A stretch of 64,000 bases of DNA from Maricaulis sp. GTDB taxonomy: Bacteria > Pseudomonadota > Alphaproteobacteria > Caulobacterales > Maricaulaceae. The notes beneath the pieces are model-generated. The model did no database searches and was not told where the DNA came from. It was given only the letters and a program-made list of their open reading frames with translations. A program made the translations under genes and the position numbers. Positions 15,958 through 41,870 of the stretch are shown one piece after another (within the stretch, counting starts at the first letter, position 1; the number at the start of each line of letters is the position of its first letter). The stretch spans positions 186,001 through 250,000 of the forward strand of contig JAEPND010000002.1 in assembly GCA_017643585.1 (NCBI GenBank). The letters run 5' to 3'.

Positions 15958-16778
15958 CAGCCATGCCCGATGCCCTGGCGCGTATTACCGCCTACAAGCT
16001 GGACCATATCGCCGCCTGCAAGGCCAGGACCGGCTATCAGGAGATCGCGGCTCGCGCCGCCGACCAGCCCGCTGTGCGTGGCTTTTTCCACGCCCTCAAG
16101 CGCGACGCGTCAGAGCGCGGCCTTGCGTTGATCGCCGAGGTCAAGAAAGCCAGCCCGTCCAAGGGCCTGATCCGCGAGGACTTCAACCCGCCCCTGCTGG
16201 CCAGGGCTTATGAAGATGGTGGTGCAACATGTCTCTCAGTGCTGACGGACAAGCCAAGCTTCAGGGGCGATGACCTTTTCCTGGGCGCAGCCCGGGACGC
16301 GACCCGCCTGCCCGCACTGCGCAAGGACTTTCTGTATGACCCCTATCAGGTTGCGGAGGCCCGGGCGCTTGGCGCAGACGCGATCCTGGTGATCATGGCC
16401 GCGGTGGATGATGACTGCGCACGTGGATTGATCGACGAGGCCGCGCGCTGGTCGCTTGATGTTCTTGTGGAAGTGCACGACGAGGCCGAGATGGACCGGG
16501 CCCTTGCGCTCTCGGCGCCACTGATCGGGGTCAATAATCGCGATCTTCGTACCTTTGAAACCTCCCTGTCGACGTTCGAACGCCTCGCAAAACAGGTCCC
16601 GGACGGACAATTCCTCGTCGCGGAAAGCGGGATATTCACGGCGGAGGATGCCGAGCGTTTGCGTTTGGCAGGTGCTGGCGCCCTGCTGGTCGGAGAGAGT
16701 CTGATGCGCCAGACTGACGTCGAACAGGCAACAAAAACGCTTATGGCCGCTTATCAGTGCCGGTTGACGACAAAATAG
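15954..16778 (+). CDS. trpC: Indole-3-glycerol-phosphate synthase
   Basis: Closes the indole ring from carboxyphenylaminodeoxyribulose phosphate; monofunctional (no TrpF domain) at 274 residues. The family motif [13 protein letters not shown] near 59-71 carries the catalytic Lys; [12 protein letters not shown] near 120, [10 protein letters not shown] near 186 and LVAESGI near 222 complete the TIM-barrel active site. trpF, trpB and trpA are not in the window. The TAG stop ends on the first base of the LexA operator that controls lexA. Confidence 0.97.
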
Positions 16779-16792
16779 AACACATGTAGAAC
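16764..16792 (+). promoter_or_regulatory. lexA promoter overlapping an SOS (LexA) box
   Basis: TTGACG (16764-16769), a 17-base spacer and TAGAAC (16787-16792) form a sigma-70-like promoter. The perfect alphaproteobacterial LexA operator GAAC-ACATGTA-GAAC occupies 16778-16792, so its second half-site is part of the -10 hexamer. Bound LexA would block the promoter, the expected autoregulation. Confidence 0.88.
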
Positions 16793-16842
16793 ACGCTTCA
16801 AGTTGCCGATTTGTTCCGGCGAAAACTTGAAGGAGTCGACCT

Positions 16843-17544
16843 GTGCTGACCCGCAAACAACATGAGCTGCTGTTATTCATTCACCAGCGCATCAAGGAAA
16901 CCGGTGTCTCCCCCTCCTTCGACGAGATGAAAGGCGCTCTGAGCCTGGCATCCAAGTCCGGTGTTCACCGCCTCATCACAGCTCTGGAAGAACGCGGGTT
17001 CATCCGCCGCCTCGCGCATCGCGCACGGGCTTTGGAAGTCCTCAAACTCCCCGAGAGTGCTGCTGCCGAAGGCACAGAGGAAAAGTCCGCTGATCTGGGC
17101 CCCAATGTTGTGCGCGCCGATTTCACCGGCCAGGGCGCAGCCCCGTCGGAGGAGCGCGGAACGATCGATGTTCCCTTGCTCGGTCGCATCGCAGCGGGTG
17201 TTCCGATCTCGGCCATTCAGCATGAAACCGACCGCTTGCCCGTTGCTTCGGACATGTTGGGCAATGGTGAACATTTTGCCCTGGAGGTCCATGGCGATTC
17301 CATGATCGAGGCCGGCATTCTGGATGGTGATACGGTTCTGATCCGTCGCTGTGACTCAGCGGATACGGGCGATATCGTTGTCGCGCTGGTCGATGATGAG
17401 GAAGCCACACTCAAGAAGCTCCGCAAGAAAGGTGGCTCGGTCGCTCTGGAAGCCGCCAATCCGGAATACGAGACCCGCATCTTCCCGCCACACCGAGTAA
17501 AGGTTCAGGGCAAGCTCGTCGGTCTTCTGCGTAGCTATCACTAA
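16843..17544 (+). CDS. lexA: LexA repressor (SOS regulator, S24 autoprotease)
   Basis: Transcriptional repressor of the SOS regulon, inactivated by RecA-stimulated self-cleavage. It is 233 residues, the longer alphaproteobacterial form. The winged-helix DNA-binding domain is at about 1-65; the cleavage site Ala118-Gly119 is in RIAAGVP; the catalytic dyad is Ser153 (GDSMIEAG) and Lys191 (ATLKKL). Translation starts at GTG 16843, supported by AAGGAG at 16830-16835. The linker at 70-108 is long and acidic. Three further half-operon observations link it to this window: its own operator and two more LexA boxes near 41.1 kb. The 3' end overlaps convergent comEC by three to four bases. Confidence 0.97.
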
Positions 17545-27341: not shown

Positions 27342-29702
27342 CTAGAACCCTGTTCTTGTACTGAAGCGGAAGAACTCCGTGCGATCGTATTCTTCCGCCA
27401 TGAATGCCTCTGCAAAGTCGAAACGGACAGGGCCAAACGGAGAGTCCCAGAAGACACTCAGACCGGCCGACGCCCGCAGCGCCAGATCATCGACTGTAAA
27501 GACCGAGCTAACACCCTCGTCTATCTGATCCGCCGAGTCGAGCATGCCCAGCGTACCGAATTCAGTGAACAGCGCCCCGCGGATACCGTATTGTTCCGGC
27601 AGGAAGCTCGGCAGGCTCAACTCAAGAGCACCGATTGCATAAAGCCTGCCACCCAGTGAATCACCCCGGATCAGCTCGCCTGTCGTCTCGTCACGCTGAA
27701 CCGTGCGCGGTCCAAGGCCACCGACGTCAAAACCGCGGAATGAGTTACCACCTTTGAAGAAACGGTCGTTAATGCGGATGCTGTCGCCGCCCCAACCCAC
27801 GGCGAAACCGGCATTACCGGTAAAGCTTGCGACCCAGCCACGGAAGAGCTCGTGGTAGAAGGCCGTCTGCACTTCCGTACGGACATAACGCACATCACCG
27901 CCGACGCCGGCCAGATCCTGGTTCAAAACGAAACGGAAACCATCACTCGGCTCAATCGGATCGTTCAGGCGCGTCCAGGAGAAGGTGTAACCGACAACAG
28001 AGGTCGTGCGATTACCGGCCTGCGAGGCCAGGGCTTGTGACGCACTGGAGAAGACCAGGACGTTGTCGTTACGCAGCGTATAGCGCAGCTGAAGGTTGGT
28101 CTGACGCGTCACCGGGAAACCAAGGCGAATACTGCCACCTGTGGATTCTGTCTGGAATGACGCTTCGCTCAGGAAATCCGAATTGACCCGGAACAGGTCA
28201 AAACCGGCCGCGAGATTGCGGTCCATGAAACGTGGTTCGGTGAAGCGGATATCGATCGTCTCCCGTCGGGAACTTGCCGATACACGCAGGCGCAGGAACT
28301 GGCCGCGACCACGCAGATTTCGCTCGGAAATGGACAGGTCGACCAGGAAGGCATCCGTCGAGGAGAAACCGGCACCGAAAGCCAGCTCACCCGTCGGCTG
28401 TTCCGTCACATCGACCATCAGGCGCGCGCGGTCCGGCGTGGACCCCGGCGTCTCGGTGATCTCAACTTCCTCGAAGAAGCCCAGGCGACGGACGTTGTTG
28501 CGCGAGCGGTCGATCAGGACGCGGTTGAAGGCATCACCCTCAACGATGTTCAGCTCGCGGCGGATCACACGGTCCAGCGTCCGCGTATTGTTCACGATGT
28601 CGATACGCTCAATATAGACCCGCGGTCCCTCGTCGATAACGTATTCCACGTCGACGGTGCGGGTTTCGCGATCACGGCGTGTCATCGGACGCACATTGAC
28701 GAAGGCATAGCCCGACGCACCCGCCGCAAAGGTAAGCGTGTCGATCGCATCCTCGATCAGCTGGCCCTGATAGATATTGCCTTCCTGGGTCGGCAACAGC
28801 GCGGCCAGGTAGTCCGGATCAAGATCCTCGATCTGGCTAGTAACCGTGACCTCGCCAAAATTATAGATCTCGCCCTCATCAATCGTGATGGTGATGTAGA
28901 AGCTTTCCTGGTCCGGCGTCAGCTCGGCAACAGAAGAAAGAACCCGGAAGTTGGCGTAACCCTGGTTCTGGTAGAATTGACGCAGCAGCTCGCGGTCATA
29001 TTCCAGGCGATCCGGGTCGTAATTGTCATTCGAGCTGAAGAAGCGCCACCAGCGCGATTCTTCCGTAACCAGCTCGCGGCGCAGCCGACGGTCGGTAAAG
29101 CTCTCATTGCCGATGAAATTGATCCGGCTGACACCGGTAACCGGACCTTCGGAGATCTCGAAAATCAGATCCACACGGTTCTGCGGAAGTTCGATGATCT
29201 GCGGCGTCACGGACGCTGCGAAACGGCCTGAGCGGCGATAGACCTCGATAATGCGCTGAACATCGGACTGGACACGTGCGCGGGTGAAGATCGCGCGCGG
29301 TTGGGCCTGGATCTCGTCCGTGATCTTGTCGTCCGCCATGGCGCGGTTCCCTTCCAGGACCACGCGGTTGATGATCGGGTTCTCCTGGACACGGACGGTG
29401 ACGAGCTCGCCATCATCCTGGATCTGGACATCAGAGAACAGGCCGGTTGCGAACAGTGTCTGGATGGACAGGTTGATCGTACGGTCATCCGCGTACTGAC
29501 CCGGCTGGATCAGCAGGTAGGAAATCACCGTGTCTGATTCCACACGCTGATTGCCCTCAACCAGGATCTGCCGGATGACGGGACGTTCGGGCGCCTGGAC
29601 GGCTGCCGCTTCCTCCTGTGCCGGTTGCGCCTGCGCCGACGCAAGTGCGCCGAAGCTAAAGGTCATCAGGGCTGCAAAGAGCACACGCAAAACACTCGCC
29701 AT
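27342..29702 (-). CDS. bamA: Outer membrane protein assembly factor BamA
   Basis: Omp85-family core of the beta-barrel assembly machine. It has 786 residues from ATG 29702: a signal peptide (about 1-25), five POTRA domains (to about residue 430, beginning with VIRQILVEGNQRV) and a C-terminal 16-strand barrel ending in Phe (RTGF), as required for BAM recognition. The barrel motif VRFDF occurs close to the C-terminus. A TTG start 30 bases upstream would add ten residues before the signal peptide and is less likely. It lies 26 bases after rseP and three before skp. Confidence 0.96.
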   Translation of the reverse strand: MASVLRVLFAALMTFSFGALASAQAQPAQEEAAAVQAPERPVIRQILVEGNQRVESDTVISYLLIQPGQYADDRTINLSIQTLFATGLFSDVQIQDDGELVTVRVQENPIINRVVLEGNRAMADDKITDEIQAQPRAIFTRARVQSDVQRIIEVYRRSGRFAASVTPQIIELPQNRVDLIFEISEGPVTGVSRINFIGNESFTDRRLRRELVTEESRWWRFFSSNDNYDPDRLEYDRELLRQFYQNQGYANFRVLSSVAELTPDQESFYITITIDEGEIYNFGEVTVTSQIEDLDPDYLAALLPTQEGNIYQGQLIEDAIDTLTFAAGASGYAFVNVRPMTRRDRETRTVDVEYVIDEGPRVYIERIDIVNNTRTLDRVIRRELNIVEGDAFNRVLIDRSRNNVRRLGFFEEVEITETPGSTPDRARLMVDVTEQPTGELAFGAGFSSTDAFLVDLSISERNLRGRGQFLRLRVSASSRRETIDIRFTEPRFMDRNLAAGFDLFRVNSDFLSEASFQTESTGGSIRLGFPVTRQTNLQLRYTLRNDNVLVFSSASQALASQAGNRTTSVVGYTFSWTRLNDPIEPSDGFRFVLNQDLAGVGGDVRYVRTEVQTAFYHELFRGWVASFTGNAGFAVGWGGDSIRINDRFFKGGNSFRGFDVGGLGPRTVQRDETTGELIRGDSLGGRLYAIGALELSLPSFLPEQYGIRGALFTEFGTLGMLDSADQIDEGVSSVFTVDDLALRASAGLSVFWDSPFGPVRFDFAEAFMAEEYDRTEFFRFSTRTGF

Positions 29703-37467: not shown

Positions 37468-37471
<4 letters not shown>
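37064..37471 (-). CDS. Hypothetical protein downstream of dnaE
   Basis: A 135-residue soluble protein I do not recognise. It begins [20 protein letters not shown], has an aromatic-rich middle ([20 protein letters not shown]) and a basic C-terminal third with several Arg. There is no signal peptide or membrane helix. Its start overlaps the dnaE stop by four bases, so it is very probably co-translated with dnaE. The frame is clean and codon use resembles its neighbours. Function unknown. Confidence 0.65.
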
Positions 37472-40920
<3,449 letters not shown>

Positions 40921-40987: not shown

Positions 40988-41083
40988 TCAGGACGCGCCT
41001 AAAATAGAGCCCCACATCGTAATCATCCAGGCGAAGCCGAGAATGGCAGTGGCAGCGGACATATCTTGAATCATGCGGCGCAT
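40988..41083 (-). CDS. sidA: Small SOS-controlled inner-membrane peptide, probable SidA-like division inhibitor
   Basis: A 31-residue peptide from ATG 41083 to TGA 40988. A short N-terminus with two Arg (MRRMIQDM) leads into one hydrophobic helix covering about residues 9-30, with two Trp and several Met. The ribosome-binding site GGGAGAG (41088-41094) lies four bases upstream. The promoter -10 overlaps a perfect LexA operator. In Caulobacter, SidA is a 29-residue SOS-induced membrane peptide that blocks division through FtsW/FtsN, and I recall its gene lying just upstream of dnaE, as here. Homology was not tested, so the symbol is provisional; size, topology, regulation and position all agree. 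Confidence 0.72.
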
Positions 41084-41102
41084 AACGCTCTCCCGTTGTC
41101 GT

Positions 41103-41143
41103 GTTCTGTATTTGTTCTATTCCCGGAACACAGGGAGCGTCAA
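41103..41143 (-). promoter_or_regulatory. SOS promoter with LexA box upstream of the small membrane-peptide gene
   Basis: On the minus strand TTGACG (41143-41138), an 18-base spacer and TAGAAC (41119-41114) form the promoter. The operator GTTC-TGTATTT-GTTC (plus-strand reading) occupies 41103-41117, overlapping the -10, and ends 19 bases before the ATG. The hexamers are the same as at lexA. Confidence 0.85.
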
Positions 41144-41161: not shown

Positions 41162-41176
41162 GTTCCAGATATGTTC
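41162..41176. promoter_or_regulatory. Second LexA box
   Basis: GTTC-CAGATAT-GTTC is a second perfect GTTC-N7-GTTC operator, 44 bases upstream of the first and 18 bases before the -35. It lies four bases past the lolD stop, so it can only serve the minus-strand sidA-dnaE promoter or an unseen divergent one. Confidence 0.78.
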
Positions 41177-41180
41177 CGCC

Positions 41181-41870
41181 CTAGGCTTGCTGGAACGGGA
41201 CCAGCTGTCCCTCGACCAGCGACACCACGCGGTCCATGCGTTCGGCCAGCTGGTGATTGTGGGTGGCCACCAAGGCTGCGGCACCACGGTCCTTCACCGC
41301 GGACTGCAAGGCCGAGAACACGTTATCCGAGGTCGCCGGATCAAGATTGCCGGTAGGCTCATCGGCCAGCAGGACATGTGGCTGGTTGGCCAGCGCCCGT
41401 GCAATGGCCACCCGTTGTTGTTCCCCGCCGGACAATTGCGCGGGTGAATGTGTGAGGCGGTCCGCCAGGCCAAGCCCGGACAAGAGACTGGTTGCATGCT
41501 CCCTCGCCTGTCGCTCCGATGCGCCCGCCACCAGCTGTGGCAGGACAACATTCTCCAGAGCATCAAACTCCGGCAGCAGGTGATGGAATTGATAGACAAA
41601 CCCCACTTCGCTGCGACGCAGGGCCGTGCGCTCGCGGTCGGACAGGTCGCGGGTTGCCGCGCCGCCAATGATCACATCGCCCCCATCGGGACGCTCGAGC
41701 AGGCCGGCGGCGTGGAGCAGCGAGGATTTGCCGGACCCGGACGGGCCGATCAGGCCGACGATCTCGCCCGGCTGCAGGCTGAGCGAAGCGCCCTTGAGCA
41801 CGTCCAGCTGCCCCGCCTCGGTGACATAGGTGCGGTGAATATCCTGAAGGTCGAGAACGGGATCACACAT
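41181..41870 (-). CDS. lolD: Lipoprotein-releasing system ATP-binding protein LolD
   Basis: ATPase of the LolCDE exporter, which releases lipoproteins from the inner membrane to LolA. It is 229 residues from ATG 41870. Walker A GPSGSGKS is at 42-49, the signature LSGGE at 146-150, and Walker B VLLADE at 166-171. The start overlaps the 3' end of lolC/E by 8 bases. In alphaproteobacteria the transporter is usually LolD with a single LolC/E-type permease. Confidence 0.94.

What the first reader, a model, noticed from the sequence alone, without database searches (positions are those of the whole stretch)
40988..41143. 31-residue SOS-controlled membrane peptide upstream of dnaE, a probable SidA relative
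A 96-base gene with a ribosome-binding site, one transmembrane helix and a promoter whose -10 is overlapped by a perfect GTTC-N7-GTTC operator lies directly upstream of dnaE. Caulobacter SidA is a 29-residue SOS-induced membrane peptide that stops division via FtsW/FtsN, and I recall it at the same position. It is too short for routine gene calling, so it may be unannotated here. It would tie DNA damage to division arrest in this lineage.
Basis: partly seen in the sequence, partly recalled or inferred. Interest (0 to 1): 0.85.

Follow-up and report, generated by a model that had tools for sequence, protein, structure and literature searches.

The report
SidA-like damage-response peptide beside dnaE
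The window carries a real 31-residue membrane peptide gene under DNA-damage control that is a distant relative of Caulobacter's division blocker SidA, and similar tiny genes sit before dnaE in a number of other alphaproteobacteria, so this damage checkpoint may be much older and more widespread than one genus.

Summary
Confirmed and widened. A 31-codon gene (40988-41083, minus) with a ribosome-binding site and a LexA operator on its -10 lies 67 nt before dnaE. The frame is under purifying selection in 17 genus loci (pN/pS 0.23); a profile finds it in 92 of 95 good-quality family genomes. Caulobacter vibrioides has in the same slot a 29-residue peptide scoring 72 bits (cut-off 35) on NCBI's curated SidA model. 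The window's peptide does not match that model; the link is by family profile: 12 of 18 SidA-side peptides at 10 bits or more, 1 of 3600 shuffles; the reverse search is weak. Outside the order, 13 of 80 sampled dnaE upstream regions have a dnaE-facing operator, and 13 of 13 have a short membrane ORF behind it, against 2 of 67 without. Five of the 13 share the window's D-x11-W-x4-W spacing. Best reading: a SidA homologue that blocks division through the FtsW complex when LexA is cleaved. Division arrest is inferred; class-wide ancestry is possible, not proven.

The parts
40988..41083 (-). sidA-like gene, 31 aa: two Arg at the N-terminus, acidic residue D7, one transmembrane helix (about residues 9-28), W19 and W24
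   Evidence: ORF; conserved in genus and family; pN/pS 0.226 and substitutions by codon position 794/176/1712 over 136 pairs of 17 genus loci
41088..41094 (-). ribosome-binding site GGGAGAG
   Evidence: sequence; purine-rich stretches stand at this place in the relatives printed
41103..41117 (-). proximal LexA operator (GAACAAATACAGAAC on the coding strand), overlapping the -10
   Evidence: of 93 loci with a called peptide (5 of them weak calls) 92 have GAAC-N7-GAA[CT] within 120 nt and 68 the exact GAAC-N7-GAAC
41114..41120 (-). -10-like element ATAGAAC
   Evidence: sequence; the consensus scan did not call it
41138..41143 (-). -35 element TTGACG
   Evidence: sequence; TTGAC 25-26 nt before the proximal box start in 17 of 17 genus loci
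41162..41176 (-). distal LexA operator (GAACATATCTGGAAC), 59 nt upstream of the proximal one
   Evidence: a second exact box at 47-48 or 58-59 nt in 13 of 17 genus loci
37468..40920 (-). dnaE, downstream neighbour, 67 nt after the peptide stop; no intrinsic terminator found between
41181..41870 (-). lolD (ABC ATPase of lipoprotein release), upstream neighbour; start codon not settled
   Evidence: best NCBIfam hit TIGR02211 (LolD) E 9.5e-75, 251 bits, below that model's cut-off of 308
16843..17544 (+). lexA, the repressor expected to act on these operators
   Evidence: NCBIfam TIGR00498 181 bits, cut-off 111; Pfam LexA_DNA_bind and Peptidase_S24
16778..16792 (+). LexA operator about 50 nt before lexA (probable autorepression site)

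Best explanation
The 31-codon gene is a SidA homologue. LexA bound at two operators keeps its promoter silent; when DNA damage makes RecA trigger LexA self-cleavage, the peptide is made. Its short basic N-terminus stays in the cytoplasm, one helix inserts in the inner membrane, and the peptide binds the late septal wall synthesis complex (FtsW with FtsI and FtsN), holding it inactive so that division stops after ring assembly until damage is repaired. Shown here by sequence: gene, operators, conservation, distant homology to SidA, slot upstream of dnaE. Inferred from SidA: membrane insertion, FtsW/FtsN binding, division arrest. Possible and untested: read-through from the same promoter also raises dnaE transcription.
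For: Frame conserved with a coding substitution pattern; found with one sequence in 12 of 12 genus genomes of the order sample, own genome included, and with a profile in 119 of 137 family genomes, 92 of 95 of good quality. 83 of the 84 profile hits whose dnaE place was listed lie 18-319 nt upstream of dnaE on its strand. The C. vibrioides peptide in that slot is SidA by the curated model and has the published length of 29 aa (PMC4211646, passages). Family profile against SidA-side peptides: 12 of 18 at 10 bits or more, 1 of 3600 shuffles; hhalign probability 94.8. Relaxed LexA operator in 92 of 93 loci; lexA, ssb, uvrA, radA, uvrD and mmcB of the same genome also have such boxes. Acid at residue 7 in 18 of 18 SidA-side rows and at 7 or 8 in 34 of 34 family rows; no K/R in the last 8 residues of 69 distinct peptides, fitting an N-in single-pass topology. 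Both FtsW positions whose mutation suppresses SidA (F145, A246; PMC4211646, passages) are F and A in this genome's FtsW (alignment, numbering).
Against: The curated SidA model gives no hit to the window peptide even at E 10. Direct BLASTP to C. vibrioides SidA covers 20 residues with 7 identities. The reverse cross-search (SidA profile against the family) is weak: 1 of 34 at 10 bits or more, 4 of 6800 shuffles. W19/20 is present in only 13 of 34 family rows and W24 in 0 of 18 SidA-side rows. The profiles were built from loci that they then score, so their E-values are partly circular. FtsW residue conservation is not specific, and FtsI I45 was not checked. No expression or phenotype data. Sampled f2 and f4/g24 genomes appear to lack the gene, so it is dispensable over evolutionary time.
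Confidence: 0.82

Rival explanations
1. The peptide is SOS-induced and membrane-bound but acts on the membrane itself, like the E. coli SOS peptides TisB or DinQ (recalled), slowing metabolism instead of targeting the divisome.
For: Same size class, one hydrophobic helix, LexA control; sequence alone cannot separate the two. A DinQ paper (PMC3567139) appears in the listing (title and start of abstract only).
Against: Homology to SidA above shuffle controls and the same slot; an acid at residue 7 or 8 in all 52 rows of A2 and A3 and fixed tryptophan spacing in many relatives fit a protein contact better than a simple pore, which is my inference.
Confidence: 0.1
2. The ORF is a leader that tunes dnaE expression, and the peptide product does not matter.
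For: Before dnaE in nearly all loci seen; no terminator found between the two genes; in three loci of genus g4 (L060, L061, L065) the peptide stop lies -1 to 2 nt from the estimated dnaE start.
Against: Amino-acid sequence under purifying selection; the gap to dnaE varies from about 0 to 300 nt, and in one genus genome (G249) the peptide is about 1.3 kb upstream (places); the hairpin in the window's gap is not stronger than in shuffles (z -0.56); SidA of Caulobacter acts as a protein (PMC4211646, passages).
Confidence: 0.06
3. Chance ORF next to a real SOS promoter of dnaE.
For: Short ORFs are common (one search lists 95 ORFs of at least 25 aa over 8 kb); one order locus (L094) has an exact box 119 nt before dnaE with no such peptide.
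Against: pN/pS 0.226 in the genus; conserved across families; 13 of 13 distant regions with a box have such an ORF against 0 of 1600 shuffled regions with box and ORF together.
Confidence: 0.01

Closest known systems
SidA of Caulobacter (NCBIfam NF033228; CCNA_02004)
   Same: Length (29 against 31 aa), single helix, basic N-terminus, acidic residue 7, W19, slot directly upstream of dnaE, LexA operator in the promoter, distant sequence homology
   Different: Not recognised by the curated model; has W24, which 0 of 18 SidA-side rows have; its operator starts 25-26 nt after the -35, over the -10, whereas in several Caulobacteraceae a box starts 9-10 nt after the -35; two operators, whereas about 97% of Caulobacter SOS promoters carry one (PMC12700426, passage)
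DidA of Caulobacter
   Same: Small single-pass division inhibitor induced by DNA damage, acting on the FtsW/FtsI/FtsN complex
   Different: 71 aa, SOS-independent, DriD-controlled, binds FtsN (PMC4211646, passages); not searched for in this genome
YneA, SosA, ChiZ
   Same: Damage-induced small membrane inhibitors of late division, suggested to meet FtsW (PMC13396833, passages)
   Different: From Bacillus, Staphylococcus and Mycobacterium, with other domain layouts; no homology claimed or tested here

Membership tests
SidA (cell division inhibitor) | Score above the curated cut-off (35 bits) of NCBIfam NF033228 | tested here: not met
   Window peptide: no hit at E up to 10; C. vibrioides peptide 72.4 bits; the f3 peptide L084 26.1 bits, also below cut-off
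SidA (cell division inhibitor) | Sequence homology to SidA | tested here: met
   Family profile A2 scores 12 of 18 SidA-side peptides at 10 bits or more, 1 of 3600 shuffles; hhalign 94.8. The reverse direction is weak, 1 of 34 against 4 of 6800
SidA (cell division inhibitor) | Gene directly upstream of dnaE, same strand | tested here: met
   67 nt here; 18-47 nt to a DnaE-like start in 27 of 29 loci of the pattern scan, 2 of 29 unresolved at the locus end
SidA (cell division inhibitor) | LexA operator in the promoter | tested here: met
   Two perfect GTTC-N7-GTTC boxes; lexA present with its own box
SidA (cell division inhibitor) | About 30 residues, one transmembrane helix, N-terminus inside | tested here: met
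SidA (cell division inhibitor) | RecA/LexA-dependent induction by DNA damage | not testable with these tools
   Needs an experiment
SidA (cell division inhibitor) | Blocks division; binds FtsW and FtsN; suppressed by activating ftsW or ftsI alleles | not testable with these tools
   Only indirect: FtsW F145 and A246 positions conserved

The most novel reading that the evidence does not exclude
SidA is the visible tip of an ancient alphaproteobacterial checkpoint: an SOS-controlled single-helix peptide inherited between lolD and dnaE since early in the class, recognisable by a basic start, an acid near residue 7 and usually a tryptophan 12 and/or 17 residues later despite little other identity, lost in many lineages, and in some lineages able to raise dnaE by read-through so that division arrest and replicase supply are coupled.
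Probability: 0.5. Interest if true: 0.72.

Novelty: new member of a known kind. Interest (0 to 1): 0.58.

Why it matters
How bacteria without SulA hold division during DNA damage is known from a few model species. A SidA-like gene in nearly every well-sequenced sampled member of another family, with candidate relatives in the same slot in distant families, would turn SidA from a Caulobacter peculiarity into a general alphaproteobacterial checkpoint. It would also give a natural set of divergent peptides with few fixed positions for mapping how a 30-residue helix switches off FtsW. The gene is short enough to be missed by gene callers and, for the window's family, is invisible to the curated model.

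Tried and rejected
Pfam and NCBIfam scans of the window peptide gave nothing, and no Pfam family matched any of the 48 rows of A1. The strict promoter and terminator scan found neither. The hairpin between peptide and dnaE was considered as a regulatory element and rejected: no stronger than shuffles and no T-run. The curated SidA model on the own genome gave no hit. Five profile hits in family f2 (G001, G006, G060, G075, G175; E 0.003-0.007, in open frames of 311-339 aa) look like chance, though they are inside the 102 of 200. In family f5 some loci (L101, L102, L105, L106) have a short hydrophobic ORF behind a LexA box before dnaE but score near zero on the loci profile, and L104 has a 42-aa ORF 54 nt behind a box that the profile missed; possible relatives only. 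L094 has an exact box 119 nt before dnaE and no peptide. L204's ORF lacks the W spacing. The W spacing is not universal: D/E-x11-W-x4-W in 15, D/E-x11-W in 32 and D/E-x16-W in 45 of 69 distinct peptides of the order set. G017 has a second profile hit away from dnaE, not followed. The original SidA paper (Modell 2011) is not held; its content is taken from later papers.

Full report
WHAT IS IN THE WINDOW. On the minus strand an ORF of 31 codons (40988-41083) lies between lolD (41181-41870) and dnaE (start 40920). It has a GGGAGAG ribosome-binding site, a TTGACG -35 (41138-41143), a -10-like ATAGAAC (41114-41120) and a perfect GTTC-N7-GTTC operator (41103-41117) over that -10. The lexA gene (16843-17544) is in the same window with an operator at 16778-16792. 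The genome has 97 exact boxes against 69 for the reversed control pattern, so many single boxes are chance. I fetched 20 regions; boxes precede ssb, uvrA, radA, uvrD and mmcB there, and also, for example, a transglycosylase gene (L231) with no obvious SOS role.

IS IT A GENE? Among 17 genus loci (the 12 of the order sample plus 5 more) the frame shows pN/pS 0.226 and substitutions by codon position of 794, 176 and 1712 over 136 pairs. One sequence finds it in 12 of 12 genus genomes of the order sample, own included. A profile of 48 rows (A1) finds it in 119 of 137 family genomes, 92 of 95 of good quality, including 18 of 19 genus genomes. In the order sample it finds 102 of 200 genomes with 103 hits. 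For 84 hits the dnaE place was listed: 83 lie 18-319 nt upstream of dnaE on its strand and one is a second hit in G017; for 19 hits it was not listed. Profile E-values are partly circular because the rows come from these loci. In G249 the peptide lies about 1.3 kb upstream of dnaE (places), outside the 700-nt search.

IS IT SidA? A pattern scan of named records gave 29 loci with a 29-residue peptide, among them C. vibrioides DSM 9893 (L133); a DnaE-like start follows 18-47 nt downstream in 27 of 29, and a GAAC-N7-GAA[CT] box precedes it in 29 of 29. The pattern was made from such peptides, so their likeness is partly imposed. L133 scores 72.4 bits on NCBIfam NF033228 (div_inhib_SidA, cut-off 35); 11 of 48 rows of A1 match the model at E 0.01 or better. 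The window peptide does not, even at E 10. The link rests on profiles: family profile against SidA-side peptides, 12 of 18 at 10 bits or more against 1 of 3600 shuffled peptides; the reverse, 1 of 34 against 4 of 6800, is weak; hhalign probability 94.8. BLASTP of the two peptides aligns 20 residues with 7 identities. Acid at residue 7: 18 of 18 SidA-side rows; at 7 or 8: 34 of 34 family rows. W19: 18 of 18 against 13 of 34 (19 or 20). W24: 0 of 18 against 31 of 34 (24 or 25). From papers: SidA is a 29-residue inner membrane protein that interacts with FtsW and FtsN, and ftsW(F145L), ftsW(A246T) and ftsI(I45V) suppress it (PMC4211646, passages); sidA is CCNA_02004 (PMC11034885, passage); dnaE is CC1926 (PMC1839093, passage). 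The FtsW of this genome keeps F and A at the two suppressor positions; FtsI was not examined.

PROMOTER. Of 93 order loci with a called peptide (5 of them weak calls, E above 0.001), 92 have a box within 120 nt when the last base of the second half may be T, and 68 have the exact box. In the genus, TTGAC starts 25-26 nt before the proximal box in 17 of 17, and 13 of 17 have a second exact box 47-48 or 58-59 nt further up, two spacings one helical turn apart; L006 has boxes at both. In Caulobacter about 97% of SOS promoters have one box (PMC12700426, passage).

BEYOND THE ORDER. The class sample gave dnaE in 132 of 142 genomes, 130 of them outside the window's order; I took the upstream regions of 80 of these 130, mostly one per family. 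With no profile involved, 13 of 80 have GAAC-N7-GAAC facing dnaE, and 13 of 13 of these have an ORF of 24-55 codons with a hydrophobic stretch and a purine-rich site 28-60 nt behind the box; without the box 2 of 67 have such an ORF (Fisher 3e-13). Two of the 13 (L173, L212) are from one family. Of 1600 Markov-resampled regions none had box and ORF together; of 80 reverse strands none. The ORF criteria were set on the first 40 regions and slightly loosened; in the 40 regions added afterwards, 6 of 6 with a box and 1 of 34 without have the ORF. Of the 13 peptides, 6 have D/E-x11-W and 5 have D/E-x11-W-x4-W, the spacing of the window peptide (D7, W19, W24); shuffles give 0.82 and 0.03 on average, and 0 of 20000 reach the observed counts. 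That motif was noticed on these peptides before it was counted, and it is not universal: 15 of 69 distinct order-set peptides have it in full. Profile A2 scores 5 of 13 rows of A4 at 10 bits or more, 0 of 2600 shuffles; the SidA-side profile 2 of 13, 0 of 2600; hhalign probabilities 96.5 and 92.4. A4 is 12 of the 13 peptides (without L204; L145 and L153 trimmed at the N-terminus) plus L183. In the family of L145, 34 of 40 genomes carry that peptide in 4 of 5 genera; of the 25 loci fetched, 23 contain dnaE; in the 21 of these where my motif search returned an ORF, 21 keep D-x11-W-x4-W (partly imposed by query and search) and 20 have a box upstream. In the family of L198 only 2 of 6 genomes have a match.

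ABSENCE. In 15 of 108 loci of the order set with dnaE no peptide was called. These are 4 of 4 f2 loci and 9 of 10 newly fetched f4 loci, with lolD ending 38-239 nt before dnaE in 9 of those 13; L104 (f5), which does have a box and a short hydrophobic ORF that the profile missed; and L034 (G249, gene further upstream). One of the f4 loci, L094, has an exact box without a peptide. In 65 of the 80 class regions there is neither box nor ORF.

MECHANISM. Best reading: a LexA-repressed single-pass peptide that, on damage, binds the FtsW/FtsI/FtsN complex and holds division, as SidA does. Shown: gene, operators, homology, slot. Inferred: insertion, target, arrest. No terminator was found between it and dnaE, so SOS read-through into dnaE is possible.

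NOVELTY. SidA is known, so this is a new, divergent member of a known kind. In eight literature searches (listings only, apart from the passages cited) I saw no report of SidA relatives outside Caulobacter or of a class-wide slot before dnaE; the library lacks most subscription journals and the original SidA paper, so this is no proof of absence.

Noticed in passing
window 41103-41117 and 41162-41176: Two LexA operators in this promoter in 13 of 17 genus loci, 47-48 or 58-59 nt apart, i.e. two spacings one helical turn apart, with one locus (L006) carrying boxes at both; suggests cooperative LexA binding.
   Followed up: partly
window 16778-17544: lexA with a probable autorepression box lies in the same window as the sidA-like gene, about 24 kb away; in Caulobacter lexA (CC1902) and dnaE (CC1926) also have nearby gene numbers (PMC1839093, table passage).
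   Followed up: no
G017:C3:315099-315185: A second profile hit (E 9.3e-5) away from dnaE in one genome of family f3, within a 132-residue open frame; possible duplicate or chance.
   Followed up: no
L060, L061, L065: In three loci of one genus the peptide's stop lies -1 to 2 nt from the estimated dnaE start, so the two genes may be translationally coupled there.
   Followed up: no
window 29178-29192: A fourth perfect GTTC-N7-GTTC in the window; its neighbours were not examined and it may be chance.
   Followed up: no
L183:295-396 (-): A class-level region with a short ORF with D7 and W24 before dnaE but no exact LexA box, perhaps a relative that has lost or changed its operator.
   Followed up: no
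L094, 119 nt before dnaE: An exact LexA box before dnaE without a SidA-like peptide, perhaps a remnant of a deleted gene or chance.
   Followed up: partly
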